Assembly: GCA_001596155.1 (NCBI GenBank)
Contig: CP014771.1
Location: 1,054,001 to 1,118,000 of the forward strand
From: Hymenobacter psoromatis
Lineage (GTDB): Bacteria > Bacteroidota > Bacteroidia > Cytophagales > Hymenobacteraceae
DNA: 64,000 nt
Direction of reading: 5' to 3'
Part shown: positions 1-21,476 of the stretch, piece after piece
Layout of the letters: the number at the start of each line of letters is the position of its first letter
Position numbering within the stretch: position 1 is the stretch's first letter
The notes under the pieces: generated by a model
The model's input: only the letters and a program-made list of their open reading frames with translations
Databases searched by the model: none
Told to the model about the DNA's origin: nothing
Position numbers and translations under genes: made by a program

Positions 1-2770
1 CGCGGGTGTTGGCGGGCTGGCCGGTTTGCTTGAACTGCTCAATATCGAGCAACAGCTGCTGAATGTGCTGGCGGGCGGTTTCGTTGGGGCGGTGCAGGTC
101 CTGCAACTCGTCGTCCAGCGCCTGGCGCTCGGCGGGGGCCGTGCGGGCAATGCCGGCCAGCAGCGTTTGCATATTTTTAGAGGCGTAGCGCTCGTAGTTA
201 CGGCACGCGCCGGCCAGCTCGGGCTGGGTCGCAAACCGCTCCAGCGCCCCGTACACCGCATCGTCGAGCCACAGCTCCTGGGCGGGCATGGGCTGCCACA
301 CGCGCTCGATGCGCCCCAGCGCCTGCACCACCACGCTTACTTGGTTCAGCACGCCATCGGCCAGGGCCAGGTAGGTAGCATTGAAGCGGTTGAGGTGCCG
401 CACGTGCCCCAGCTCGGCGGTGGCCTGGGCCTCTGATAGCAGCTTGGCATACAGCAGCTTCATCACCCCGTACACGTCACGCTTGATGGCGGCCGGCTCC
501 TGGTCCGCTGCTTCGAGCTGGCGGGTGCCGCTGAAGTAGAAGTAGGGCGCTTCGAGCAGATGCAGGTAGCGAAAGTCGCGCTTGCCAGCCTCGTCCTCCG
601 CCTCGTAGCCGGCCGCCGTCGGGTAGTATTGCAGGTTCACGCCGTTGCCGGCCGAGGGGTAGGTGGTGGCCACCAGCACCGGCCGGCCCTGCCAGAACAG
701 CTCATTGTATTGCCGGGCCAGCGTGGGGTCGGCGCGCTTCGCCTGCCCAAACCGCGCATCGTACAGCACTACGTAGCAGGCCAGGCGCTCGTCGGTGGCC
801 TCGTCGCGGTACCACACCTCGTAGCAGGGCAGCTGCGCCGACGAGCCGGGCAGCGGCGCGGCTCCGTACCAGCCATCTTCGTCGCCGCCCTTTTGCAGCA
901 GCAGCGCCACCTGCCGCACCGAGTTCAGGAATAGCAGATGGGTTTGGTCGGCGGGGAGTTCGCCGGCGGCGCTTTGGCAAGCCAGCCGGGCCAGCAGACC
1001 GAAAAAATGCCGTACCCGCCGCAGCCGGTGACCAGTGGGGCCGCTCTCGCCAAAGTTGTCGTGGTTGCGGGCAATGGCCGCCAGCTGCGGGCCGAAAGCC
1101 ACGTCCATATCCAGCGGCGCGGCCTGGTGCAGGGTAATGGTGTTGCCGCGCGCGGCGGCTTTGGCTGCGTTAGCCCGCTCGATATCCTGCTGGTCCTCCG
1201 CAGTAGTATCCAGGGGCTGAAAAGAGCTGGTGGGGTCCGAAGGGTGCGCCAGGCCGGCCCAGTCGAAGTTGCGCAGCACCCGGCCAATGTGCGCCGTAGC
1301 CGACAGCCCGAACACGAGGTGCGCCCGGCCCATCTCGCGCATCAGCGCCTCGGGGCTGGTGGGCAGCGAGCGGTAGCTGATGGCTACCTCGTGCGGGTCG
1401 GTGAGGCGGCTGCGGTCGGCCTCAATTTCGTACAAGCCAAAGCCATTGGCCAGCAGGTTGCCGTAGTTGGTTTCGTAAAACTCGGTCTGGTGGCTGACCG
1501 GCCGAATGCGCTGCACCTCGGCCCGGTAGTCGGTGTTGCCGAAGCATTGGCGCAGCAACTCGGGGTACACATCTTCGTGCTCGGTTTTCAGCCAGCTGAA
1601 TAGCCGGATAATATCCTTTACGGCCCGGTTCACCACGTCGAGCAGCACGAAGGCTTTTTGGCCGTTTTTGCTGGTTGTCAGCTCAAAGGTATTCGGGCGG
1701 CTGGGGGTGCGGCTCAGGTACACGGGCTGCTGCACCAGCGAGTAGTTCGACTGGAAAATTGCCTTGCCCCGCAGCTCTTTGTCCTCACTCACGAAGTGCG
1801 TGATATTGGGGAAATCAATGTCGTGCTTCTCCCTCAGCACTTCAATCTGAGCGCAGATTTTCGCCAGCCGGTCGCGGATGGGCTGCCAGCGGGCCTCGCA
1901 GGCCAGGTAGCCGCTGTAGGCCAGCTTTTGTTCGCTGATGCGCCGGTAAAACGTCTGCACCAGGCCGAAGGGGTCGCGCACCTCGCGGTCGTCGGCCAGC
2001 ATGGTCAGCAGGTCGTTTTCCAGAAAATCGAATTCATCGAACACGAACACGTAGCGGCCCGTGGCCGGAGCCGCCCACTGGCCCAGCCGCTGGGTCTTTT
2101 CGCCATCAAACACCCCGTGGAAAGCCTTCTGCACCGTCAGCAGCAGCAGCCGGCAGGCGGGCGTTTCCCGAAAGTGCAGGTAGGGAAACAGCGCCCGCCA
2201 CAGCGGCAGCTCTGCCAGCGTGCGGGCTTCCTGCTGGGTGGTCCTTTGCCCCTCGGCCGGGGTAGCGGTGGCGGCCAGCCGGGCCAGGGTCAGCAAGCCC
2301 TTGAGGGGCCGCAGCAGCTCGCGGGCCAGCTCGGCCACGTCAAACAGCCCCGCCAGCGCGGCCTCCTCCATTGCCTGCACCCGCGCTAGCCGGGTGGCCC
2401 GGCCCCGCAGTCGTTCCAGGGTGGTGGCGGTGAGCGGGTTGCGTTGGTTGTAGTCGGCGAGCAGGGCGGGGGCGGCCGGGTGGTCGAGCAGGCTGGCCAG
2501 CAGCCCTTGCGCCAGGGCTTCGCGCAGCTGGTCGGCATCGCGCTTTTGCTGCACGTGCAGGCCCTGGTCTTCGACCTGGGCGGCCATCTCGTCCAGCAGT
2601 TGAATGCGGTTAGCGACGTAGATGAACTTGGTATCGGCCGGGAAGTCGCCGGAGCGGAGCAGCGCGGCCAGGCTACTGGTTTTGCCCAGGCCGGTGCCGC
2701 CCAGCACCAGCTTCAGGCCCGTATCGTGGGCCAGCAGAGTGCGGCAGTAATAATCAGTGTAAGAACTCAT
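1..2770 (-). CDS. Large SF2 helicase, defence-island type (partial, C-terminus off the left edge)
   Basis: The reading frame starts at an ATG (2770-2768) and stays open for 923 codons to the window edge. Helicase motifs seen on direct translation: Walker A GGTGLGKT (residues 24-31), a DEFD box preceded by YVFVF (245-248), FGLSAT motif III (SAT 490-492), a motif IV-like LLFLNSVRQV, a motif V-like SAGNGVN, and motif VI QALGRIER (816-823). About 210 residues separate motifs I and II and 245 separate II and III. This spacing resembles XPD/DinG helicases more than compact DEAD-box ones, but I see no four-cysteine iron-sulfur cluster between I and II. It is transcribed divergently from the WYL regulator gene at 2919, so the two may share control. 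The exact family is not recognised; a Cas3-like or other phage-defence helicase is possible. Confidence 0.85.
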   Translation of the reverse strand, partial: MSSYTDYYCRTLLAHDTGLKLVLGGTGLGKTSSLAALLRSGDFPADTKFIYVANRIQLLDEMAAQVEDQGLHVQQKRDADQLREALAQGLLASLLDHPAAPALLADYNQRNPLTATTLERLRGRATRLARVQAMEEAALAGLFDVAELARELLRPLKGLLTLARLAATATPAEGQRTTQQEARTLAELPLWRALFPYLHFRETPACRLLLLTVQKAFHGVFDGEKTQRLGQWAAPATGRYVFVFDEFDFLENDLLTMLADDREVRDPFGLVQTFYRRISEQKLAYSGYLACEARWQPIRDRLAKICAQIEVLREKHDIDFPNITHFVSEDKELRGKAIFQSNYSLVQQPVYLSRTPSRPNTFELTTSKNGQKAFVLLDVVNRAVKDIIRLFSWLKTEHEDVYPELLRQCFGNTDYRAEVQRIRPVSHQTEFYETNYGNLLANGFGLYEIEADRSRLTDPHEVAISYRSLPTSPEALMREMGRAHLVFGLSATAHIGRVLRNFDWAGLAHPSDPTSSFQPLDTTAEDQQDIERANAAKAAARGNTITLHQAAPLDMDVAFGPQLAAIARNHDNFGESGPTGHRLRRVRHFFGLLARLACQSAAGELPADQTHLLFLNSVRQVALLLQKGGDEDGWYGAAPLPGSSAQLPCYEVWYRDEATDERLACYVVLYDARFGQAKRADPTLARQYNELFWQGRPVLVATTYPSAGNGVNLQYYPTAAGYEAEDEAGKRDFRYLHLLEAPYFYFSGTRQLEAADQEPAAIKRDVYGVMKLLYAKLLSEAQATAELGHVRHLNRFNATYLALADGVLNQVSVVVQALGRIERVWQPMPAQELWLDDAVYGALERFATQPELAGACRNYERYASKNMQTLLAGIARTAPAERQALDDELQDLHRPNETARQHIQQLLLDIEQFKQTGQPANTR

Positions 2771-2918
2771 TAGCGAAAATAAGGTGAGTAGACCAGCAGA
2801 AAAGCACGGGGTAGCCACTGCTGGTCTCCGGCGTTTTTTCCATCTTGTGTTCGCAAACCTCCCCCACCCCAGTCCAGCCTATCAAAACTGGTAATCTGAC
2901 TCGAAAATATTTTTCCTG

Positions 2919-3932
2919 ATGCCCGTTACTAAGTTGGCATACCTCCGCTACCAGACCATCGACCACTGCCTGAGAAACCGCCAGCGCATCTGGCAGGAAG
3001 CAGACTTGTTGCAAGCTCTTTCGCACGCGCACCGCGAGCACACCGGCTCGGACAAGGGCATTAGTCGCAGCACGCTTTTCACGGATTTGAAGGCTATGAA
3101 GCCGGGCGGGGCCACGGGCTTCGAAGCACCTATCGCGCACACCAAAGACAAAGGCTACCATTACACGCGGCCAGGTTATTCCATTTCCCAGTCGCCCGTT
3201 TCCGCCCCCGATGTAGTGGTGTTGCACCAGGCATTGCTGGCCCTGCGGGCCATTCGGGGCGTGGGGCTGGCCACGGCGCTGGACGACATTATTCGGCGGG
3301 TGGAAAGCCGGCTAGCCCTGACGGGCAGCACCAGCCCAATACCCACCGCCCTGCAATTCGAGGCCGCTCCCGACTACACGGGCACGCAGTGGCTACAGCC
3401 GCTCTACGAAGCCATTCAGCAGCGGCAGCCCCTGCGGCTGGCTTATCGGTCTTACCGGGCAGCGGAGGCCTCCCTGCATATCGTGCATCCGCACCTGCTG
3501 AAGGCGTATCTGCACCGCTGGTTTCTGGTGGGGCACTCGCCTACGGAGGCTGGCCCGCGGGTTTTCGCCCTCGACCGCATTACTGGCAGTGCGCCTACCC
3601 CCCTACCCTACGTGCCGGCGGCCGTGGATTTTGAAACCTATTTTCAGCACGTCATCGGCCCCACAGTGCCGCTTGGCGAAGTGCCGACTACCGTGCATCT
3701 GCGCTTTTCGGGGGGCCGCGCGCCCTACGTGCACACCAAGCCGCTGCACCGCAGCCAGTGCCTGGTGGCCGGCACGGCGGGCCTGGAACTGACGCTGCAT
3801 GTCATTCCCAACCCGGAGCTGGTCACGCAGCTGCTCAGCTTTGGGGCTGATGTGGAGGTGCTGGCTCCCGCCAAGCTACGGGCTACTATGCAGAAGCGGC
3901 TAGGGGCTGCTTTGGCCCGCTACGGTAGCTAA
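2919..3932 (+). CDS. WYL-domain transcriptional regulator
   Basis: This 337-aa protein has a predicted N-terminal DNA-binding helical region (about residues 8-65) and a central to C-terminal WYL domain. The typical Bacteroidota signature is visible: LRLAYRSYR (172-180), HPHLLKAYLHRWFLVGHS (190-207) and RVFALDRI (214-221). WYL proteins bind nucleic acid or nucleotide ligands and commonly control phage-defence loci and CRISPR arrays. The gene is divergent from the helicase (148 bp between starts) and about 100 bp upstream of the 77-aa protein/ATPase/Wadjet series. The natural inference is that it regulates one or both flanks. No exact TAnnTTTG element was found in the divergent spacer. Confidence 0.88.
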   Translation: MPVTKLAYLRYQTIDHCLRNRQRIWQEADLLQALSHAHREHTGSDKGISRSTLFTDLKAMKPGGATGFEAPIAHTKDKGYHYTRPGYSISQSPVSAPDVVVLHQALLALRAIRGVGLATALDDIIRRVESRLALTGSTSPIPTALQFEAAPDYTGTQWLQPLYEAIQQRQPLRLAYRSYRAAEASLHIVHPHLLKAYLHRWFLVGHSPTEAGPRVFALDRITGSAPTPLPYVPAAVDFETYFQHVIGPTVPLGEVPTTVHLRFSGGRAPYVHTKPLHRSQCLVAGTAGLELTLHVIPNPELVTQLLSFGADVEVLAPAKLRATMQKRLGAALARYGS

Positions 3933-4033
3933 AGCTGACACTTAGGCGGCGGCCGGTTTAGTTTAGGGTTTCAAAACAGCATCCCAGCGCTTCGGGAGTC
4001 TGTTTTCTTTTTTCCATCTATTCGCATCCTGCT

Positions 4034-4267
4034 GTGAGTCAATCCTTACCAATTTCTTCTGTATCACCCGCTTTTCAAAACCCTAATGCGGAGCTTGCCG
4101 CTGAGATAGCACGGGCCTTTCAGCAGGCGGGCCTCATCAATGCCGACGACCAAGCCCTTTGTGAGCAGATGCTGAATGGCACGGTCCCGGCCAATGCCAA
4201 CGCCTGGCAGCAGTTGCTGGAAATTCTGCCCTACCCCCCTACTTCTACTCAGCCCGATGCCCTCTAG
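4034..4267 (+). CDS. Small hypothetical protein, translationally coupled to the zinc-hook ATPase
   Basis: A 77-aa reading frame with a GTG start (4034-4036), predicted mostly helical and without a membrane segment or signal peptide. It is rich in Ala, Gln and Leu (for example AELAAEIARAFQQAGLI). Its last 11 bases overlap the ATG of the ATPase gene (4257), typical of translational coupling and of a partner protein made in fixed ratio. I do not recognise a family. The position, directly before an SMC/Rad50-like ATPase, would suit a small middle component of a multi-gene ATPase defence system, but that is inference. Confidence 0.6.
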   Translation: MSQSLPISSVSPAFQNPNAELAAEIARAFQQAGLINADDQALCEQMLNGTVPANANAWQQLLEILPYPPTSTQPDAL

Positions 4268-6215
4268 AATTGCGCAGCTAAAGCTGGCCAACTACCGGGG
4301 GGCATCTCAGCCCCTCACAGTCGCGTTCGACCAGCACAAAACCATCATCCTGATTTTTGGTGAAAATGGCACGGGTAAAAGCACCTTGGTTGATGCCATC
4401 GACGCGGTAGCAAACGAATCGCTGGGCTCCATCGCGGGGCGGGGGGCGGGGCAGGGGGTTCACCAGTATCTACGGTCTTTAGTGGCGGCGGGTCAGCCAG
4501 AGGTTGAGCTTGTTACCAAGGCCGGCCATAGCTGGCGGGCTACCCTCAAAGGCCGCCATATATTCGTGCAGGCCATTGGCAGCCACGGCTTGGCCCGGTC
4601 GCCGGTGCATGTGCTGCGCCGCGGCAAGCTGCTAAAACTGTTGGAAGACCGACCGGCCGACCGCTACGCCGCCATGAAGCACTTCCTGGACGTGGCCGCC
4701 GTGGAAGCCAGCGAAGCCGTTTTGCGCGCCAGTTATGCCGTTTTAGAAACTGATTATAAACAGCAGGAAACCACGCGCAAAAGCGATGAAATCTTATTGC
4801 GCGAAGAGTGGGAGCGCCATAAACTGCCGCACGAAACGGCTACTACCCCCCTGGAATGGGCGCAGGCCCGGCTACGGGTGAATATAGATACTTTACGCAA
4901 GAATGCCGCGCAGCTGGGAGCCATCCGGCAACTGCTCCTGAACCTGGCCACCACGACCGACCACACCCTGGCCCGCGGTAAAGAACGGCAGGCGGCCCAG
5001 GATGCTTACCAACAAACGCAGATTCAGCTCGCGGCCCTACCCCCCACTACGCAGCCGGCCGCGCTGGTGGCTGTGTTGCGCGATACTCTGCACTACTTGC
5101 AGCAACCGGGCAGCCACTCCGCTACCTGCCCGGTTTGCGCCGCTGCTACCGACGAATCTCAGTTGCGCACGCACCTCACCGAGCGCCTGCAAGCCCTGCA
5201 AACTACGGCTACCGTGGTAGATGCGGACCTGAACGCTGCCCAGGCGCTCCGGGTAGCCAATGACCGCTTGCAGCAGGCCAGCCGCAGCCTCACCAACCAG
5301 CTTGACCAGCTGGCTACTTTGCTGGCAATACGTACTCCTACCGCCCTGGCCACCTGCGCGCCAGCGTGGGCCACTTACCACGCGGCGGCCCCAACCGCCA
5401 CGAAGCCGAACCTGAAGACGCGGGCCGCTTATAAATTAGCCTGCCAGCTACAAACCCAGCTAGGTGACCTGGAGGCTGAAAGCCAGGCACTGACCACGCA
5501 AGTCGGGTTATTCGATTCATTGAAAAGCCGAATTGCCAACTCGGAGCATATTTCGCGCAAGCTGTCCGGGACCGATGCCAGCCGCCGCCGTCTCAAGCAG
5601 GCTTTGGACATCGTAACCGAGCAACGCAAACAGTTTACCCAGCGCGTGCTCAACTCCATCACGGCGGAGGTTAATCGGCTTTACGCAGCCATTCATCCCG
5701 CTGAAAATATCGGGCTCGACCGGCTCGAAATGGACCCCAATCGCCGGGCTTCGCTTACGCAACGGGTTAATTTCGTGGGCCATAGCGCCGACGTGCCCCC
5801 GCAAGCCTATTTCAGCGAGTCGCACCTCGATACGCTGGGCTTTTGTATGTGGCTGGCACTGGCCAAGCTCAGCGGGGCGCAGGAAGCCATTTTGGTGCTG
5901 GATGACGTATTTACCTCCGTTGATTTGGAGCACTTTCACCGCATTAGTGACTTGCTCGATGCCGAAGCGCCCTACTTCAAGCAGGTCATCATCGCCACCC
6001 ACAGCCGCCGCTGGTATGACCGCTACCAACGGCACCGCGACAACGTGCAACTACTGCGCCTGGAGCGTTGGTCGCTCGCGCAGGGCATTCGGGTATTCAG
6101 CGAAAAAACCTTTGTGGCCGAGCTGGAAACTTCTTTGGCCCAGGTGCCCCTCAACCGGCGCGATGTAGCCACGCAGGCGGGCATATTAGAGCGGTTTCCA
6201 AATCACTGTACATGA
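4257..6215 (+). pseudogene. N-terminal part of an SMC/Rad50-like AAA ATPase, truncated by an IS630 element
   Basis: The start is taken at ATG 4257 (MPSRIAQLKL...). Upstream in-frame codons only overlap the 77-aa gene. Features: Walker A GENGTGKS (35-42), a predicted helical, probably coiled-coil middle, a CPVC zinc-hook-like motif (Cys291, Cys294), a signature-like FSESHLDTLG, Walker B ILVLDDVF (Asp549-Asp550) and an H-loop ATHS (His582). This is the layout of RecF/SbcC/Rad50-type DNA ATPases. Native sequence ends at codon 644 (TTA 6186-6188). Eight foreign residues (ERFPNHCT) read from the IS end precede the stop. The lost C-terminal 150 residues continue at 7201. All ATPase motifs survive, so the truncated product might still fold, but the C-terminal domain is missing. 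Confidence 0.85.
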
Positions 6216-7198
6216 TAGCCACAATGGTCAAACCAGTTTTTGGCATCCTGTTCGGTTACCCACTCGGCGGCGGCCCGGATAGCTTCCTCCAGCAGGTCGC
6301 GGGTGCGGGCCTGGGCGGTGCGCAGCCACGTCTTGAGTTTGCTAAAAGCTAGTTCAATGGGGTTAAAGTCCGGCGAATAAGGCGGCAGGTAGCGTAGCCG
6401 CGCCCCGTAGCTTTTCACGATTTCATCCAAGCCTTCCACCTTATGCACCGACAAATTATCGAGCACCACCACGTCGCCCGGCCGCAGGCTGGGGCCGAGC
6501 ACCTGGTCGAGGTAGGCGGCAAACACGTCGCCGTTAACGGCCCCGTTGACGCTGAGCAACGCCCCGAGCCCGTCCGGGGTCAGGGCGGCGAGGAGTGTCA
6601 CGTTCGGGCCGTTGTGCAACGGCACAGCTTGGTCCAGGCGCTGGCCGGCCGGGGCCCGGCCGTAGCGGCGGCAATAAGTAAGGTTGGTGCTCGTCTCGTC
6701 CACGAACACGAAACGGGTAACATCCTCTTGCTGAATATCTTCCAAAAATAAGCGACGCAAGGCTACGACGCGTTCGGTGTCGCGCTCGGCAGCGTGGATG
6801 CTTTTTTTTTGCGGCCCCAGCCTAGGCTTTCCACTGCCCGCCATGTGCTCGTACGGCTCAGGACGGGGCCGTTGGCGGCGAGCAGGGCGGTGCCCAGTTC
6901 GGCCAGTGTCGCGTCGGGCTGCGCCACCAGGCAGGCCTGCAATAGGTCCCGGCCCGTCGGGTCCAGGCGCGGTGCCGCGCCGCCGCTCGCGGGCAGGGCC
7001 GCCAGTGAACCGCTCGTGCGCTGGCGGCGCAAAAGCTTGTCCACGAAGGAGATGGAAACGCTGAATTGCGCCGCCACTTGATAAATTCGGGCCTGCGGCA
7101 CGGCACACGCCGCCGCTACCCGTTCTCGCAAATCAATCGAATACGCTTTCATGCACAAAAGGTACGTGAGATTCTGTACACTGACTTGGAAACCGCTC
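6189..7198 (-). mobile_element. IS630-family insertion sequence (1010 bp)
   Basis: Terminal inverted repeats start GAGCGGTTTCCAA at both ends and match at 22 of 24 positions. The element is flanked by TA at 6187-6188 and 7199-7200, the dinucleotide target duplication expected for IS630/Tc1-mariner elements. It is inserted opposite to the host operon and splits the zinc-hook ATPase gene. Deleting it with one TA restores an uninterrupted reading frame. Ends and transposase both look intact, so the insertion is probably recent and the element may be mobile. Confidence 0.95.
6203..7152 (-). CDS. IS630-family transposase made by -1 frameshift over an A9 run
   Basis: Two overlapping frames. The first starts at ATG 7152 (MKAYSIDLRERV, a typical IS630 start) with helix-turn-helix sequence and ends at 6763. 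The second covers the catalytic domain and ends at 6203. They meet at a run of nine A on the coding strand (complement of 6802-6810) within LGWGRKKK / PQKKSIHAAE, a classic slippery site for -1 frameshifting. Catalytic DDE residues: Asp in FVDETS (codon about 6700), Asp in VVLDNLSVHK (about 6460) and Glu in NPIELAFSKLK (about 6355). An alternative is a simple one-base mutation in the A run. Confidence 0.9.
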
Positions 7199-7200
7199 TA

Positions 7201-7653
7201 TTGGAGGAACTACTGCAATCAATTGCTGCCCTGTACCGATGCCTCATGCCGCTGTACGAGACCCCAAAGTTTGTACTTCATGAATTACTAAGCGGCACCA
7301 CTAAAGTGCTGAAAATAGCAAAAGTGAAGCGCTTGAAACTGGTGCCAACCGGGCTGCCACTCCTCGACCCCAATAGCGTGGATGCGTGGGAAACCATTGA
7401 GATTTGGCCCTTATTTGCAGCGGTGAGCCGCCACAGTACCAACCCCCGCAATGCCGGAGTTCACTATAGCCAGCCAGGGCTGGAATTAGCAGATGAGGAA
7501 ATGGAGGCTTTCGCCACTGCGGCCTTGGCACTGGCGAAAGCCCTGACCTGCCCGATATGCTTCGAGCTTCCCCGCAAAATAGTAGCTGGCAGCTACTTAG
7601 GGTGCAACTGCCGAGTGAATAAAATGCAGTTGCTTCCTATTCAACGGCCTTAA
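7201..7653 (+). pseudogene. Severed C-terminal part of the zinc-hook ATPase
   Basis: These 150 codons continue in frame from codon 644 of the ATPase once the IS630 element and one TA are removed, joining as AGIL-LEELLQSIAALYRC. The total ancestral length is about 794 aa. The fragment carries a second cysteine motif, TCPICFEL followed by GCNC, which could bind a metal. Its TAA stop (7651-7653) directly abuts a GTG 7654 in frame with jetA, which ties the ATPase to the Wadjet operon. The frame is open back into the IS end, so a separate C-terminal peptide could be made from a rare start such as TTG near 7187; this is not established. Confidence 0.85.
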
Positions 7654-7677
7654 GTGAGCTACCCAATAACTTTCCCC

Positions 7678-9141
7678 ATGTCCTACCCACTCTACCGCAG
7701 CCTCTTCAGCGCCGACCGCGCCCCGGCAGCGGTGCGGGTGCTGCGCAGCCACGAGGCGGCGCTGGTGCTGTGCTTTTTGCAGGAGAATTTTAAGGCGGGC
7801 AGCTACGCGCCGGTGCGGGCCAACGACTGGCTGGCCGGGCAGCTGGCCGACTTTCTGGAAACCTGGGACGTGCGCGGGGACGACGACGCGGGCGACCTGC
7901 CGACGCTGGGCCTCTCGTGGGCTGAGCGGGCGGCCCGGCTGCTGCGCGACTGGGTGCGCAAGGGCTACCTCACGCTCTACACTGATGAGCAAGGCGCTGA
8001 CCAGCACACTCTTACACCCGAGCTAGAGAGTGTGCTCGATTGGGTGCAGTCGCTGCTGAACAAGCCCACGTTCGTGGGTACCGAGTCGCGGTTTCTGGAT
8101 ATTTTGCAGAAGCTGCGCGAGCTGGTGCAAAACTCGGCCGACGACTGGCAGGCCCGGCTGGCCGAGCTGGAAAAGCAACGCAGCGCCCTCGACGCGCAGA
8201 TTCGGGAGCTGAAGCTGACCAAAACCGTGCGCACCTACGAGAACTACGAAATCGCGGAGCGCTACCAAACGGTGAGCGGCGTGGCGCGGGGCCTGCTGCG
8301 CGATTTTCGGGAGGTGGAGGGCAATTTTCGGGACATTACCCAGCGCATCTACCAGCAGCAGGCGGCGGCCGGCCACACCAAAGGCGGCCTGCTGGGCCTG
8401 GCCCTCGATGCCCTCGACGAGCTGCGCCTCACGGCCCAGGGCCGCAGCTTTGAGGCATTTTACCGGCACCTGAACGACCCCCGGCAGCGCGCCGAGCTGG
8501 ATGCGCTGGTGCGCCAGGTGTTTGAGCTACTGACCGACCGGGGCCTGGCAGCCGGCGACGAGTTTCTGCGCAAAATCCGCCCGTACCTGCTCGGCGAGGG
8601 GCGCAAGGTGAATGACTCGTTTTATGCCCTGGCCCGCAAGCTGGAAAAGATACTTTCGGAGAAAAACCTGCGCGACCGGCGCAAGTCGCTGGCGCTCATC
8701 CACGACATTCGGGCGCTGGCCTTCGCCGTGATGGACAGCCCACCCACCGACCCGGCTTTTCTGGAGCTGGAGGGCCGCGCCGATTACCTCGCCACCGAAA
8801 GCACGGTGGCCCTCAAGGAGCGCGAAAGCGCCATTGTGCCCCGCGTGCTGGCCGTGGCCCGGCCCGAAGAGCCCGAGCTGGCGGCCCTGGTAAGCCCCCG
8901 CGTGGTGGACAAGGCCCGCCTCGCCGCCAACATCAGCGCCCTATTGCGCGACCAGAGCCAGGTAACGCTGCGGCAGGTGGTGGCCGCCCACGCCCTACGC
9001 CACGGCGTGCCCGAGCTGATGGCCTACGGCAGCATCGCGGCCAATTCGCCCAAGCACCTCATCAACCAGCAGCAAAAGGATATTTTTGACCTCGGCGACG
9101 GGCGCTGGTGCAAATTTCCCGAGGTTATTTTTTGCCGATAA
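7678..9141 (+). CDS. jetA: Wadjet protein JetA (DUF3375)
   Basis: JetA is the kleisin-like subunit of the Wadjet (JetABCD) SMC complex, which recognises and destroys small circular plasmids. The 487-aa product starts at ATG 7678 (MSYPLYRSLF). An in-frame GTG at 7654, abutting the stop of the preceding ATPase fragment, would add eight residues. The N-terminus (RSHEAALVLCFLQENF and following) and a predicted helical middle match the DUF3375 pattern. Synteny with DUF4194, SMC-like and DUF2220 genes downstream makes the identification firm. A 195-bp spacer carrying a long hairpin separates it from jetB, which is unusual because Wadjet genes normally overlap or abut. Confidence 0.93.
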   Translation: MSYPLYRSLFSADRAPAAVRVLRSHEAALVLCFLQENFKAGSYAPVRANDWLAGQLADFLETWDVRGDDDAGDLPTLGLSWAERAARLLRDWVRKGYLTLYTDEQGADQHTLTPELESVLDWVQSLLNKPTFVGTESRFLDILQKLRELVQNSADDWQARLAELEKQRSALDAQIRELKLTKTVRTYENYEIAERYQTVSGVARGLLRDFREVEGNFRDITQRIYQQQAAAGHTKGGLLGLALDALDELRLTAQGRSFEAFYRHLNDPRQRAELDALVRQVFELLTDRGLAAGDEFLRKIRPYLLGEGRKVNDSFYALARKLEKILSEKNLRDRRKSLALIHDIRALAFAVMDSPPTDPAFLELEGRADYLATESTVALKERESAIVPRVLAVARPEEPELAALVSPRVVDKARLAANISALLRDQSQVTLRQVVAAHALRHGVPELMAYGSIAANSPKHLINQQQKDIFDLGDGRWCKFPEVIFCR

Positions 9142-9181
9142 GGCGTAAGAATAATCAGCTAAAATCTTCATTACCTAAGAC

Positions 9182-9300
9182 TTAAGCAAATCGTCTGTCA
9201 TTGCGAGCGCAGCGCGGCAATCGCCCCAGAACGAAATCGTTCGGGTGTCGTTCCGGGGCGATTGCCGCGCTGCGCTCGCAATGACGGACGATTTGCTTAA
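9182..9300. repeat. Long palindromic repeat inside the Wadjet operon (GTCATTGCGAGC family)
   Basis: Two 53-bp arms (9182-9234 and 9248-9300) are reverse complements with two mismatches, around a 13-nt loop. Each arm carries the word GTCATTGCGAGCGCAGCGCG followed by GCAATCGC, which itself forms a TTGC/GCAA mini-stem. It sits between jetA and jetB, where transcription should be continuous, so it could act as an RNA processing, attenuation or termination element. Related copies occur at 24822 and 48871. Confidence 0.93.
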
Positions 9301-9336
9301 ATCATATACTATCACCCTACCAAAATCCCTACCCCC

Positions 9337-9924
9337 TTGCCCGCTCCCTACGCCTCCGTCATTATTAAGCTGCTGCAAAGCCACGCTCTTTACGACACCG
9401 ACGACCGCGCGCACTGGCAGCAGCTGGAGACGCACGAGACGGCCGTGCGGGCGCACTTTGCGCAGTTGGGGGTGGTGCTCGACCTGAACCGGGCCGATGG
9501 CTACGCCCGCCTCACCCAGCCCGAACCGGCCGACGACGACCCCGCCCCGCCCCTGCGTCTGCTGCGCCGAGTGCCACTCAGCTACGAGCAGGCGTTGCTG
9601 GGCGTGGTGCTGCGCGAATGGCTGGAAGAGCACGAAAGCAGCGCCCACGCCGCCAGCCCGCGCCTCTACGCTACCCGCGAGCAGCTGCGCGAGCGGGTGG
9701 AGCTGTTTTTTCGGCAGCAACCTAATCAAAAGGCTTTTTTGAGTAAGCTGGACACTATTATTGAGCGCCTGACGGAGCACGGCTTCCTGAAAATAACGCA
9801 CAAGGACGACCTTCATCCCGACCAGACGCGCTACGAGGTGAAGCCGCTGCTGAAGGCTAAAATCAGCCTCGAAAAACTGAGCGAATTTTTAGAAAAACTA
9901 CGAAACCATGCCGAGTCTGTTTGA
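9337..9924 (+). CDS. jetB: Wadjet protein JetB (DUF4194)
   Basis: JetB is the KITE-type winged-helix partner of the Wadjet SMC complex. The frame gives 195 aa from a TTG start (9337). No ATG or GTG is available between the in-frame stop at 9298-9300 and the conserved N-terminal region, so a TTG start is the best choice. Typical features are the N-terminal helix (YASVIIKLLQSHALYD), a central LSYEQALLGVVLREWLEEHE segment and C-terminal winged-helix-like sequence (TIIERLTEHGFLK). It overlaps jetC by 17 bp, indicating coupling. Confidence 0.9.
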   Translation: MPAPYASVIIKLLQSHALYDTDDRAHWQQLETHETAVRAHFAQLGVVLDLNRADGYARLTQPEPADDDPAPPLRLLRRVPLSYEQALLGVVLREWLEEHESSAHAASPRLYATREQLRERVELFFRQQPNQKAFLSKLDTIIERLTEHGFLKITHKDDLHPDQTRYEVKPLLKAKISLEKLSEFLEKLRNHAESV

Positions 9925-12900
9925 GGCGGTGGCCGGGCCGGCGGGCTACCGGCTCAAGCTGCTGGAGGTGTTCAACTGGGGCACGTTTCACGAGGGCGAC
10001 GGTGGCCAGGACATCTGGCGGCTGGTGCCCGATGGGCAGAATACGCTGCTGACGGGTAGCAACGGCTCGGGCAAAACCACCCTCGTGGATGGCCTGCTGG
10101 CGCTGCTGGTAAACCCCACGAAGCGGTTTTTCAACCAGTCGTCGGGGGCCGAAAGCCGGAGCGGCCGCAGCGAAGAATCTTACGTGGAGGGCCACTACGG
10201 CCGCACCCAGGACGAGGAAAAGCAGAACACCAAGCCCGAAAAGCTGCGGCCCAACCAGCGGCAGACCTACTCCATCCTGCTCGGCGTGTTCACCAATCCG
10301 CACAGCTTGCCTATCACGCTGGTGCAGGTGCGGTGGTTTGGCACAGGCGGGATGCAGCGCAAGTTTTTGGTGGCCAAAGCCGAACTGAACATTGCCGACC
10401 ACATTCCCTTTGGCACTAACACGCCCTGGGTGAACGGGTTGAAGAAGCGGTTCGCGCCGGGCGTGGTGGAGGACTTTCCCACGTTCGCGCCCTACGCGGC
10501 GGCGTTTCGGCGGCTGTTTGGCATGAAGGAAAAGGCCCTGACGCTGTTCAACCAGACGGTAGGCATGAAGGTAATCGGCAACCTGGACGATTTTATTCGG
10601 ACCAATATGCTGGAGGAAAGCACCGCCGAAGCCGAATTCAGCAAGCTGATGGGCAACTACCAGACCCTGCTCGTGTCGTACCGGGCGCTGGAAAAAGCCA
10701 AAACTCAGCTCGCGCTGCTGCGCCCGGTGCATGAGCGCAACCACGAATACGAGGACTTGCAACAGCGGCTGCGCCAGACGCAGGAGGATAAACGGCGGCT
10801 GGAACCGTGGTTTGCCCAGCAGCAAATTCGCCTCTGGACGGCCGAAACCGCCCGCCTCGACCGGGAGCTGGACCGCCTCGGCGGGCTGCTGGCCCAGCAG
10901 GAAGCCGACCTGGAAACCGCCGATGAGCAGCGCGTTCGGCTGGCCGGGCAGCTTGACAACGACCAGATTGGCCGCGAAATAAAGGAGCTGGAGCGCCAGA
11001 TTCGCGAGCTGGAAAAGAGCAAAAGCACCAAAGAGCAAGCCCTGAACAGCTACAACCGCCTGGCCCGGCAGCTGGAGCTGGTGGCCGACCCCGACGCGGG
11101 CCTATTCGAGGCCAACATTGCCCAGGCCGGGGCGGCCCGCCAGGCCACGCAGGCGCTTCAGCAGCAGCTCGCGGAGCAGAAATACGCCGCCCGCACGGCC
11201 CGCGACGCGCAAAAAGCTGATTTTGAGCGGCTGGAAGCCGACGTGACGCAGCTGCAAAAAAGCACGGGTAAGGTAACGGGCCGGGTAGCCGATATCCGGC
11301 AGGAAATCCTGGACGCGGTGGAGGCCAGTCCGGTCGATATTCCGTTCGTGGCCGAAATCATGCAGGTGAAAGCCGAGGAAAAAGCCGTGTGGAACGAGGC
11401 GATTGAAAAGCTGCTGCACAGCTTCGGGCGCGACCTGCTGGTGCCGGAGCACCTGTACGCGGCGGTGCGGGCGCACGTGCATCACGAGCGCGACCTGCGT
11501 GGCAAAGTCGTGTTTCATCGGGTGGATAACAAAACGCCCCGGCCCATTTTCCCGGATGCGCGGACGGTGGTGGCTAAGCTCGATTTCAACCCCAAAAGCC
11601 CGTTTGCGGCCTGGGCAGAAAACGCCGTGGCGGCGCGGTTCGGCTACGTCTGCACCGAGGATTTCACTACGTTCGAGCGGGCGGAAAAGGCAGTGCTGCC
11701 GTCGGGCCTTATTCGCAACAAAAACCGGCACGAGCGCGACGACTCGGCCGCCCACCGCCACATTCTGGGCTGGGACAACCGCGAATTATTGCGCGAATAC
11801 CAGCGTCGGGGCCGCGAGTTGAGCACGGCTATCAGCCAGGCGGAAAGTAATTTGCGGCGAATAGACAAAGAACTGGAACGCGCGGCGAAACGCGAAAAGG
11901 ACCAGGATGCTTTCCTGCTTTTCAACCAGTTTCCGAAGCTGGACTGGCAGGCCGACGCGCACCACGTTACGCAGCTGACGCGGCAAAAAGAGGCGCTGGA
12001 ACACGAAAACGCTTCCCTCAAAACGCTGAAAGAGCAGCTGGCCGCGCTCCGGCAAGACATTGATAAACTGAGTAGAGACCGGGAGCAGACCCGCGACGAG
12101 TTCAAGGACGCGGAGAAGAGCCTCCAGGCCCTGGCGGCGGAGCAACGGGAACAGCAGCACCTGCTCGAAACCTTCGACGCGGCTGACCTGGCACCGCCCG
12201 CCGCCGGCCTGGCCGCGCTGACGGAGCCCGTGCGCGAGGCGCTGACGTATGGGCAGTTTTTCGTACAAAAGGAGCAGCTGGAACGCATGGTAACGCAGCA
12301 GTTGGCCGCCCTGCACCACGACAAGGAAACGCAGAAAAAAGCCATTCGGGAGGCCATGCGGGGCTTTTTGCTGCCGGGCGAGGAGGTGCTGCGCAAGTTT
12401 GCGGACTGGCACAGCGACACCCGCGAGCTACGCAATGAAATGGACCAACTGGCCGAATACCTGGACCGCTATGCGCAAATCCGCAACGAGCAACTGGCGG
12501 AGCTGGAAACCCGCTTCCGCGATGAGTTCAACCGGGGCGTGACCAAGGCGCTGACCGACTACTGCCAGTCGCTGGAGACGCAGCACGAGGCCATTTGCGA
12601 CACGATAGACGAGATAAACCAGTCGCTGCGCGACATTGATTTTAACCTCAACCCGGATACCTATATCGAGCTGGTCCGCACCGACTCGCGCACGCCCAGC
12701 ATCCGCGCCTTCCGCGAGGAGCAGCTCAAAAGCTGGGTGCCCGACCTGACGCTACTGGATTTTGCCGCCGACCCCAAGGAGGCGCAGCTGGCGCATTTCG
12801 TGGCGCACATTCAGCCCTTCATCACCGAGCTGCAAGCCAGGGAAAACGAGAAATGGCGGCAGCAGGTAGCCGACGTGCGCAACTGGTCCACCTTCAAGGC

Positions 12901-13348
12901 CCGCGAGTATTACCGGGCCGACAAAAGCCTGAAAAGCGTGTACGAAAGCTCGGGCAGCCTCTCGGGCGGCGAGGGCGCGCAGCTGGCCTACACGGTGCTG
13001 GGCGCGGCCATCGCGCACCAGTTTGGCATTGGGCGGCGCGCGGCGCAGGTGGCCCGCTCGTTCCGTTTTATCGTTATTGATGAGGCTTTTAGCAAGCTTG
13101 ATGAGGACAAGTCGAAGTACCTGCTCAACCTCTGCCGCAGCCTGGGCTTGCAGCTAATGGTGGTGACGCCGCTTACTTCCCTACCCCTGCTGGAGAAGGA
13201 TGTCGAAGTCATTCACTGGGTAACCAAGGGCAAGCCCGACACCCGCAAGTCGGTGGTCGTGGACGTGCCCATTGGGCGCTACGCGGAGCGGAAAGAAGCC
13301 TTGCTGGCCGAATCGGAAGCCGAAGAAGCCGCCGCCGCCCATGATTAG
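9908..13348 (+). CDS. jetC: Wadjet SMC-like ATPase JetC
   Basis: This is the DNA-translocating motor of the Wadjet complex (MukB/SMC-like). The 1146-aa protein has Walker A GSNGSGKT (50-57), two long predicted coiled-coil stretches (roughly 270-470 and 640-830) around a hinge-like middle, ABC signature LSGGEGAQ (1018-1025) and Walker B FIVIDEAF (Asp1058, Glu1059). All elements required for ATP hydrolysis are present, so the protein should be active. It overlaps jetB by 17 bp and jetD by 8 bp. A possible alternative is a generic SbcC-like ATPase, which the neighbouring genes exclude. Confidence 0.95.
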   Translation: MPSLFEAVAGPAGYRLKLLEVFNWGTFHEGDGGQDIWRLVPDGQNTLLTGSNGSGKTTLVDGLLALLVNPTKRFFNQSSGAESRSGRSEESYVEGHYGRTQDEEKQNTKPEKLRPNQRQTYSILLGVFTNPHSLPITLVQVRWFGTGGMQRKFLVAKAELNIADHIPFGTNTPWVNGLKKRFAPGVVEDFPTFAPYAAAFRRLFGMKEKALTLFNQTVGMKVIGNLDDFIRTNMLEESTAEAEFSKLMGNYQTLLVSYRALEKAKTQLALLRPVHERNHEYEDLQQRLRQTQEDKRRLEPWFAQQQIRLWTAETARLDRELDRLGGLLAQQEADLETADEQRVRLAGQLDNDQIGREIKELERQIRELEKSKSTKEQALNSYNRLARQLELVADPDAGLFEANIAQAGAARQATQALQQQLAEQKYAARTARDAQKADFERLEADVTQLQKSTGKVTGRVADIRQEILDAVEASPVDIPFVAEIMQVKAEEKAVWNEAIEKLLHSFGRDLLVPEHLYAAVRAHVHHERDLRGKVVFHRVDNKTPRPIFPDARTVVAKLDFNPKSPFAAWAENAVAARFGYVCTEDFTTFERAEKAVLPSGLIRNKNRHERDDSAAHRHILGWDNRELLREYQRRGRELSTAISQAESNLRRIDKELERAAKREKDQDAFLLFNQFPKLDWQADAHHVTQLTRQKEALEHENASLKTLKEQLAALRQDIDKLSRDREQTRDEFKDAEKSLQALAAEQREQQHLLETFDAADLAPPAAGLAALTEPVREALTYGQFFVQKEQLERMVTQQLAALHHDKETQKKAIREAMRGFLLPGEEVLRKFADWHSDTRELRNEMDQLAEYLDRYAQIRNEQLAELETRFRDEFNRGVTKALTDYCQSLETQHEAICDTIDEINQSLRDIDFNLNPDTYIELVRTDSRTPSIRAFREEQLKSWVPDLTLLDFAADPKEAQLAHFVAHIQPFITELQARENEKWRQQVADVRNWSTFKAREYYRADKSLKSVYESSGSLSGGEGAQLAYTVLGAAIAHQFGIGRRAAQVARSFRFIVIDEAFSKLDEDKSKYLLNLCRSLGLQLMVVTPLTSLPLLEKDVEVIHWVTKGKPDTRKSVVVDVPIGRYAERKEALLAESEAEEAAAAHD

Positions 13349-14495
13349 CCTGCCCGAGCTGCGCGCCAAAGCCCTGCGCCGCTACCCCCGCGTGCTGCGG
13401 GCGCACCTGGCTGGCGAAGTCCTTTTCCCGCTGCTCATCCCAACCGACAAAACCCTGGACCGCGGCCAGGGCCACGAACACATTCATGCCCAGCAAAGGG
13501 AGCTGCTAGCCCACGCGAAAAACCGCACGGGCCACGGGTACTGGCTCACTACCAGGCTAAACCGCAAAACCGGCCAGAGTGAAATCAAGCGCGTTGAGTT
13601 TGAAACCCTAACTGACTACCTATCCTTTATGGATAAAACGGCCGAGTTCGCGGTTTTTGAAAGCAACGCGGCCCTAACGGCGGCTACCGTGCCCACGCTG
13701 CTCCCGCTACCCGCCCTACCCCCCCTGCTGCTCGACTACGCCGCCGCATGGCCCGATTTGCTGCTGGTGTGCCAGTATTTTCAGCAGCACCCGCAGCCCA
13801 ATCAATACGTGCGCAACTTGCCGCTGGCGCTGCCTACCAAGTTCATTGAGCGGCACCAATCGGCCTTGCGCCCGCTGCTGGACGCGCTGATTCCCGCACC
13901 ACTTCGAGCCGACGAAAGCGATTTTTTCCGGCGCTTTCACCTGCTGCTGGAGGAGCCCGGCATCAAGCTGCGCTTCCTGGATGCGGCGCAGCGGCTGCAC
14001 CCGGCCGTATCGCAGTGCAGCCTGTGGGTCAGCGAGTTTCGGCAGCTAAACCTAGCCAGCCAGCGAATATTTATCGTCGAAAACCTGACGACTTTCCTGT
14101 CCTTTCCGCCCGTGCCGGAGGCAGTTGCTATCTGGGGCGGCGGCTTCGCGGTGAGCCTGCTGGCCGGGGCCGACTGGCTGGCAACCAAGCAGTTGTTTTA
14201 CTGGGGCGACATCGACGTACACGGCTTCCAGATTCTGGCCCGGATTCGGACGCACTACCCGGCCATTCGCTCCTTATTGATGGATGAAGCCACCTTTGCC
14301 GCGCATCACCGGGGCGAGCAGGGCGACCAGTTTCAGGCGGCCGCCCTACCCCAGCTCACGGCGGCCGAGCAGCCGCTCTATGATTCTTTGCTGCGCACCA
14401 ACGCGCGCCTGGAACAGGAAAAACTGCCCCTGGCTTACGTAATGGCGGCCATCGCGCAAGCCACCGGCCACCCTACCCGGCGCGGCGCACCTTAA
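13341..14495 (+). CDS. jetD: Wadjet nuclease JetD (DUF3322-DUF2220, Toprim-like)
   Basis: JetD is the topoisomerase VI-like subunit that cleaves the extruded plasmid. The start is ATG 13341 (MISLPELRAK), overlapping the jetC stop by 8 bp, giving 384 aa. The N-terminal half matches the DUF3322 pattern. The C-terminal half holds the Toprim-like metal site: Glu247 in FIVENLTTF and the acidic pair in WGDIDVHGF (Asp290, Asp292). With these residues intact the nuclease should be functional. It is the last gene of the operon; the next gene is convergent on the other strand. Confidence 0.94.
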   Translation: MISLPELRAKALRRYPRVLRAHLAGEVLFPLLIPTDKTLDRGQGHEHIHAQQRELLAHAKNRTGHGYWLTTRLNRKTGQSEIKRVEFETLTDYLSFMDKTAEFAVFESNAALTAATVPTLLPLPALPPLLLDYAAAWPDLLLVCQYFQQHPQPNQYVRNLPLALPTKFIERHQSALRPLLDALIPAPLRADESDFFRRFHLLLEEPGIKLRFLDAAQRLHPAVSQCSLWVSEFRQLNLASQRIFIVENLTTFLSFPPVPEAVAIWGGGFAVSLLAGADWLATKQLFYWGDIDVHGFQILARIRTHYPAIRSLLMDEATFAAHHRGEQGDQFQAAALPQLTAAEQPLYDSLLRTNARLEQEKLPLAYVMAAIAQATGHPTRRGAP

Positions 14496-21367: not shown

Positions 21368-21379
21368 TTGAGAAGAACG

Positions 21380-21476
21380 GTCATGCTGAGCTTGCCGAAG
21401 CATCTCTGCCGCGTAAGTAATCCTGACGTTTGAAGTTACTTACGCGGTAGAGATGCTTCGACAAGCTCAGCATGAC
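21380..21476. repeat. Palindromic repeat between coxB and coxA (GTCATGCTGAGC family)
   Basis: Arms 21380-21420 and 21436-21476 (41 bp, two mismatches, 15-nt loop). Each begins GTCATGCTGAGCTTG and contains an inner ATGCT/AGCAT mini-stem. It separates coxB from coxA and may tune their relative expression. Confidence 0.93.

What the first reader, a model, noticed from the sequence alone, without database searches (positions are those of the whole stretch)
2771..14495. Wadjet operon with an upstream WYL / 77-aa / zinc-hook ATPase module
WYL regulator, 77-aa protein, SMC/Rad50-like ATPase and JetABCD are all on the + strand. The 77-aa gene overlaps the ATPase by 11 bp, and the ATPase stop abuts an in-frame jetA GTG (7653/7654) once the IS630 is discounted. 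Known Wadjet systems consist of JetA-D. A second DNA-scanning ATPase joined to the operon is not part of the standard description that I know and could be an accessory sensor or effector.
Basis: partly seen in the sequence, partly recalled or inferred. Interest (0 to 1): 0.85.

Follow-up and report, generated by a model that had tools for sequence, protein, structure and literature searches.

The report
Suspected RNase guard upstream of Wadjet
In two species of the bacterial genus Hymenobacter, a plasmid-destroying defence operon (Wadjet) is preceded by a small protein and a DNA-repair-like ATPase whose tail looks like an RNA-cutting suicide enzyme; the same pair usually sits in other defence systems, and in this strain a jumping gene has cut it in two.

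Summary
The features exist: WYL regulator, 77-aa gene, Rad50/SMC-like ATPase split by an IS630, complete type I jetABCD. Corrections: jetA most likely starts at ATG 7678, not GTG 7654, and the ATPase ends in a predicted HEPN domain. Folded alone, that domain aligns best to HEPN proteins (Foldseek alone not significant), and its R-[N/D]-x(3-4)-H motif is kept in 56 of 56 relatives. With its zinc-hook it resembles the RNases RloC/PrrC. Its usual home is not Wadjet: of 78 sampled loci, 61 have an upstream SNF2 helicase, 64 the small partner, 2 type I R-M genes, 1 an operonic Wadjet. In 120 Hymenobacter genomes, 2 of 9 Wadjets carry it: this genome and H. setariae. In both, homology to a relative lacking the pair begins at the jetA start, so the pair was gained or lost at the same point in two Wadjet lineages. 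Best reading: a portable small-protein + ABC-HEPN guard cassette recruited in front of Wadjet. RNase activity and coupling to Wadjet are inferred. Here IS630 cuts inside the HEPN domain, probably disarming it while Wadjet stays intact.

The parts
2919..3932 (+). WYL/WCX transcription regulator, 337 aa
   Evidence: Pfam WYL 54.6 bits, WCX 54.5 bits; 67% identical in H. setariae at the same place
4034..4267 (+). 77-aa small partner (p77), GTG start, overlaps the ATPase by 11 bp
   Evidence: member of the small-partner family by HMM, 24 bits versus 6.4 for the best of 1000 shuffles; dN/dS about 0.14
4257..6188 (+). 5' part of the ABC-HEPN gene: SMC/Rad50-like ATPase head, coiled coil with CPxC hook, first helix and beginning of the second helix of the predicted HEPN domain
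   Evidence: fold of the intact H. setariae homologue
6189..7198 (-). IS630-family insertion, TA on both sides, splits the ABC-HEPN gene just before the invariant Glu of HEPN helix 2
   Evidence: DDE_3 domain; ends and TA; second identical copy at G000:C3:3493298-3494307
7199..7653 (+). 3' part of the ABC-HEPN gene: rest of the HEPN domain with the RNAGVH motif and a C-terminal Cys cluster
   Evidence: tblastn 67% to H. setariae residues 648-791; motif printed
7678..9141 (+). jetA (start ATG 7678)
   Evidence: PADLOC JetA1 548 bits; start by comparison with G099
9337..9924 (+). jetB
   Evidence: PADLOC JetB1 216 bits
9908..13348 (+). jetC
   Evidence: PADLOC JetC1 1053 bits; PDB 8dk2 JetC E=2e-47
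13341..14495 (+). jetD (Toprim nuclease)
   Evidence: PADLOC JetD1 360 bits; PDB 7til JetD E=2e-20
1..2818 (-). part (runs off the window) of a divergent DdmD-like gene that lies at the same place in H. setariae
   Evidence: 80% identical to the 1241-aa gene of H. setariae; PDB DdmD chains E=3e-5 for the H. setariae protein (the name DdmD from PADLOC, and recall)

Best explanation
p77 plus the ATPase is a two-gene guard (abortive-infection) cassette that works like PrrC/RloC. [quoted passage not shown] It then cleaves RNA (tRNA is the likeliest target by analogy), arresting the cell. The small protein is probably the adaptor or inhibitor that ties it to the partner. The cassette normally sits between an SNF2 helicase and type III-like Mod/Res genes. 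In Hymenobacter it was placed in front of jetABCD, where it would act as a second line behind Wadjet. In the window strain IS630 has cut inside the HEPN domain, so the effector is probably dead while Wadjet remains intact. Shown here: family, gene order, IS insertion, and (as predictions) HEPN fold and motif. Inferred: RNase activity, silencing, coupling to Wadjet, role of p77.
Confidence: 0.5

Rival explanations
1. Independent defence gene pair in a defence island: p77-ABC-HEPN has its own trigger and is only co-transcribed with, or parked next to, Wadjet (as are the DdmD-like pair and WYL).
For: Wadjet adjacency in only 2 of 11 Hymenobacter genomes with the ATPase and 1 of 78 genome-contig loci; the 9 other Hymenobacter copies sit beside different genes (eight next to or within 3.4 kb of an E2-E1-JAB gene, one at a contig end); a Wadjet as close as 97% in JetA occurs without it in G099.
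Against: The joint is tight (9 and 24 bp), co-directional, and lies at the jetA start in two Wadjet lineages 61% identical in JetC; in most of the sampled family the pair is inside, not beside, a DNA-targeting operon.
Confidence: 0.38
2. Accessory DNA sensor for Wadjet: the ATPase scans DNA and hands circular plasmids to JetABCD; no RNase role.
For: Rad50/SMC-like head with hook, co-directional position.
Against: In the passages read of PMC10586767 purified JetABCD cleaves circular DNA by itself, with JetABC as sensor; the conserved HEPN motif in 56 of 56 has no place in this model; most relatives lack Wadjet.
Confidence: 0.07
3. Lamassu-like system: the ATPase is an LmuB-type SMC and a neighbour is its effector.
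For: Best PADLOC model is LmuB (86 bits).
Against: No LmuA or LmuC match listed for the eight window proteins scanned (the lists of the ATPase and of JetC were cut at 25 rows); an effector-like domain is in the ATPase itself; the usual neighbours are R-M genes.
Confidence: 0.03

Closest known systems
RloC (ABC ATPase with zinc-hook and HEPN anticodon nuclease)
   Same: Rad50-like head, CxxC zinc-hook coiled coil, C-terminal HEPN domain (here predicted), similar size (RloC 658-897 aa in PMC2610378)
   Different: Order of conserved residues differs (here Glu643 ... Arg724 ... His729; the triad given in PMC2610378 is Arg320-Glu324-His356); has a regular small partner gene; mostly embedded in multi-gene DNA-targeting operons, whereas RloC was rarely linked to type I R-M
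PrrC (guard of type Ic R-M)
   Same: ABC-HEPN gene lodged inside R-M operons; here between hsdM and hsdS in L041
   Different: PrrC is about half the size and without the hook insert (PMC2610378); here the main hosts are SNF2/type III-like loci and, in two species, Wadjet
Wadjet type I (JetABCD)
   Same: All four genes, in order, complete
   Different: Two extra co-directional genes and WYL in front of jetA
Lamassu LmuB
   Same: SMC-like head and coiled coil; best PADLOC score
   Different: No LmuA or LmuC seen next to it; carries its own effector-like domain
Hma / BREX-related DUF499 systems
   Same: ATPase (often HEPN-fused) with SNF2 helicase and methylase (PMC12839542, passages)
   Different: There the ATPase is a DUF499 AAA+ protein with N-terminal HEPN; here an ABC/SMC protein with C-terminal HEPN, and the nuclease set is type III-like

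Membership tests
Wadjet type I | JetA, JetB, JetC, JetD of type I in one operon | tested here: met
   Best PADLOC models JetA1 548, JetB1 216, JetC1 1053, JetD1 360 bits
Wadjet type I | Cleaves circular plasmids | not testable with these tools
   Needs an assay
HEPN superfamily | Rx4-6H motif with polar residue after R | tested here: met
   56 of 56 rows of A2; RNAGVH in the window
HEPN superfamily | Four-helix HEPN fold, acidic residue in helix 2, motif after helix 3 | tested here: met
   On predicted folds only and by second-look alignment; the Foldseek search alone was not significant
HEPN superfamily | RNase activity | not testable with these tools
   No assay
RloC | ABC head with zinc-hook coiled coil and C-terminal HEPN | tested here: met
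   (HEPN as a prediction)
RloC | Catalytic residues in the PrrC/RloC order (Arg, Glu, then His) | tested here: inconclusive
   Conserved order here is Glu643, Arg724, His729, unlike the order given in PMC2610378; no RloC sequence was compared. Not filed as RloC
PrrC | Invariable link to type Ic R-M | tested here: not met
   Type I R-M genes in 2 of 78 loci; subtype not tested
Lamassu | LmuA and/or LmuC next to LmuB | tested here: not met
   None listed for the eight window proteins at E 0.1 (two lists cut at 25 rows)
Hma / BREX-related | DUF499 AAA+ ATPase | tested here: not met
   Pfam at E 0.1 lists ABC/SMC-type families, no DUF499, for the ATPase 5' part

The most novel reading that the evidence does not exclude
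A portable guard cassette (small adaptor + ABC-HEPN RNase) plugs into unrelated DNA-targeting defences: SNF2/type III-like R-M, type I R-M and, in Hymenobacter, Wadjet. Wadjet would then have a suicide back-up that fires when the plasmid cutter is blocked, and the window strain would be a natural disarmed mutant.
Probability: 0.33. Interest if true: 0.82.

Novelty: new variant of a known kind. Interest (0 to 1): 0.6.

Why it matters
If true, PrrC-style guarding is not a peculiarity of restriction-modification but a more general add-on, and Wadjet, described as JetABCD alone in the passages read here, can be wired to programmed cell arrest. The family also marks a recurrent, cross-phylum operon (SNF2 helicase, small protein, ABC-HEPN, Mod, Res). 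For its ATPase the Pfam, NCBIfam and PADLOC scans gave only general ATPase models or models of other proteins, and for its small protein nothing above a cut-off.

Tried and rejected
Lamassu membership was rejected (no LmuA/LmuC listed). Membership in RloC or PrrC is not claimed (context differs, residue order seems to differ); 'works like' was kept. A Wadjet-wide accessory was rejected: 11 of 11 further jetA loci of the phylum have no ATPase, p77 or WYL relative within 8 kb upstream (I chose 11 of the 59, because most of the 59 belong to one genus). JetD_C was searched in the genomes of the 78 loci: 15 have a match over the cut-off (7 of 50; 8 of 28). Many of the 78 contigs end sooner, so these are lower bounds.

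Led nowhere: the viral-contig scan gave 19 loci, of which only L086 covers nearly the whole protein, in the usual SNF2 setting. A terminator between WYL and p77 stayed undecided. A first GyrB comparison used a wrong frame and was replaced. Contexts of the 11 unnamed database proteins nearest the window (P0003-P0013) could not be fetched, because metagenome scans were capped at 0, so the Wadjet-linked clade may be larger than two. Literature: in searches (listings with the starts of abstracts) no title or abstract start joins Wadjet to HEPN or to such an ATPase; of the five papers of one search I saw passages of three. The ABC-ATPase classification paper 10.1093/nar/gkaa726 (recalled) is not held and may already describe this family.
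Full report
What is in the window. The window lies in a 5.24-Mb contig of genome G000. I take the genus to be Hymenobacter, because its nearest named homologues and several same-genus contigs match Hymenobacter records; family and phylum names below follow from that. From 2919 to 14495 the + strand reads WYL, p77, ATPase (interrupted), jetA, jetB, jetC, jetD. The four jet genes are complete and type I by their best models; JetD aligns to solved JetD across the Toprim part, with the VEN and YWGD(I/M)D segments matched, and JetC to solved JetC over residues 16-1096.

The interruption. A 1010-bp IS630-type element lies at 6189-7198, with matching inverted ends and a TA on each side. An identical copy sits elsewhere in the genome, so the insertion is probably recent. 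In homologues the protein runs on without a break at this point, with the segment QAG(V/I)LLEELL or a variant of it; the insertion falls just before the Glu that is invariant in the family (E643 in H. setariae numbering). The 5' piece keeps the ATPase head and hook, the 3' piece the RN...H motif.

jetA start. The nearest relative of this Wadjet, G099 (JetA 97%, JetC 94%, GyrB 97%), shows no blastn match upstream of window 7674 in its jetA region, and has the ATG that corresponds to 7678. The abutting in-frame GTG 7654 is therefore most likely not the start; the gap between the ATPase stop and jetA is 24 bp, and 9 bp in H. setariae.

What p77 is. A model built from 50 small upstream proteins of other loci, which did not include p77 or its H. 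setariae counterpart, scores p77 at 24.0 bits; the best of 1000 shuffled sequences of the five candidates tested scored 6.4. It has an equally placed counterpart in H. setariae and dN/dS about 0.14. It is the regular small partner of this ATPase family.

Upstream on the same strand: SNF2 helicase within 4 kb in 61 of 78 (58 of the 70 with at least 3 kb upstream), small partner within 400 bp in 64 of 78 (76 have at least 300 bp upstream). Downstream: Mod-like methylase in 49 of 78, Res-like helicase-nuclease in 45 of 78, both in 41 of the 60 with at least 6 kb downstream. Type I R-M genes: 2 of 78, L041 in Pontibacter (hsdM - small protein - ATPase - hsdS - hsdR) and L065 (hsdM divergent, 0.9 kb away). 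Wadjet genes inside the fetched loci: 2 of 78, H. setariae (L008, operonic) and an Elusimicrobiota genome (L016), where jetA to jetD relatives lie 3.3-8.7 kb upstream on the other strand of a canonical SNF2 locus; JetD_C searches of the whole genomes add L079 (12 kb) and a weak match near L046 (14 kb). L053 is a Hymenobacter E2-E1-JAB locus. The other 13 of 78 have none of the SNF2, Hsd, Jet or E2-E1-JAB neighbours, several of them contig ends or distant relatives. Neighbours of one canonical and two type I loci were named by Pfam and PADLOC: SNF2-related (DrmD-like), N6_N4 methylase (type III), ResIII (type III), HsdM/S/R.

In Hymenobacter. Of 120 genomes, 9 have this JetC and 11 a full-length ATPase of the family, counting the window's two pieces as one (54 of the 120 have some match at E 0.001, the rest being short matches to the general ATPase motif or other weak hits). 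Five genomes have both (G000, G033, G087, G096, G099); the two are adjacent only in G000 and G033 (H. setariae) and lie on different contigs in the other three. In 204 genomes of the family one more has the ATPase (G648; its coordinates equal those of the Pontibacter type I locus, so I take it to be the same). In 395 genomes of the phylum 59 have JetA over the cut-off and 4 the ATPase at 1e-30 (one of them a partial match), with one overlap, the window's own genome; only the best two or three first-look candidates per genome were scored there.

How the join arose. JetC falls into lineage A (window, G099: 94%) and lineage B (G033, G096, G020, G087: 79-89%), about 59-61% between them. The ATPase module is in front of jetA in one member of each and absent there from its near relatives. 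Window against G099: homology covers jetABCD and reaches the gene beyond jetD, and stops at 7674, 4 bp before the jetA ATG. G033 against G096: homology (84% over 7969 bp) covers jetABCD and beyond and stops within the first codons of jetA. Between window and G033, in contrast, the upstream block (DdmD-like gene, WYL, p77, ATPase 5' part) is 76% identical in DNA over 6.2 kb. So module-plus and module-minus alleles differ at the same point in both lineages. Two gains, or one old gain with several losses, are both possible; synonymous differences are of the same order for module and jet genes (pS 0.57-0.78 and 0.42-0.54), so I do not choose. Either way the module is not needed for a Wadjet to be kept, and it is cleanly joined to it.

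Mechanism. PrrC is held silent by the R-M enzyme it is linked to and released when a phage peptide blocks that enzyme; RloC adds a zinc-hook and is thought to respond to DNA damage (PMC2610378, passages; PMC3710099 section 10). The present family has RloC's architecture and PrrC's genomic habit, plus a small partner. I therefore commit to a guard cassette with an RNase effector; for Wadjet the guarded state (JetABCD blocked or saturated) is a guess. The independent-system rival is nearly as likely. The strain's IS insertion inside the HEPN part fits, but does not prove, a costly effector.

Known or new. HEPN guards of R-M systems are known and were proposed to be common there (PMC3710099, section 10). 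WYL regulators near Wadjet are known (PMC9122601, one passage). I found no paper that links an ABC-HEPN protein to Wadjet in the listings of searches; one relevant paper was not readable.

Noticed in passing
window 1-2818 (-) and G000:C3 1051004-1053295; L160 14701-18426; L231 323-2602; L229; L230: Divergent to WYL lies a 1241-aa DdmD-like gene (PDB DdmD chains E=3e-5, PADLOC DdmD 24 bits) with a co-directional 708-759-aa partner that matched nothing in PADLOC, Pfam or PDB sequences; a DdmDE-like pair beside Wadjet in two species, and without Wadjet next to it in G020 and G024.
   Followed up: partly
L016 113-17984: Elusimicrobiota genome: jetABCD relatives divergent from a canonical SNF2-small-ABC-HEPN-Mod-Res operon.
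   Followed up: partly
L151-L157, L216, L217: Hymenobacter and Fibrella loci, several on plasmids: p77-ATPase near an oppositely oriented unit of a 376-aa protein (weak LmuA/MBL models; named CobQ in the Fibrella record) and an E2-E1-JAB protein, mostly with a WYL gene; beside WYL in G133 a Mokosh MkoC-like gene (929 bits).
   Followed up: partly
cluster C8, e.g. L038 10185-12011: Nine loci carry a gene of one cluster near the ATPase; the one member scanned (L038) matches AIPR/AbiU.
   Followed up: no
L218 (G285:C11 upstream of jetA): Another Wadjet of the phylum has a co-directional type III Mod/Res-like pair directly upstream of jetA.
   Followed up: no
L144 8075-12444 (G099): In the closest Wadjet relative the place in front of jetA is taken by a co-directional helicase gene and, further up, a McrC-like gene.
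   Followed up: partly
window 21374-21466; L144 6389-6513: The jetA-jetB gap of G099 holds a repeat that matches a window repeat in both orientations, so it is palindromic.
   Followed up: no
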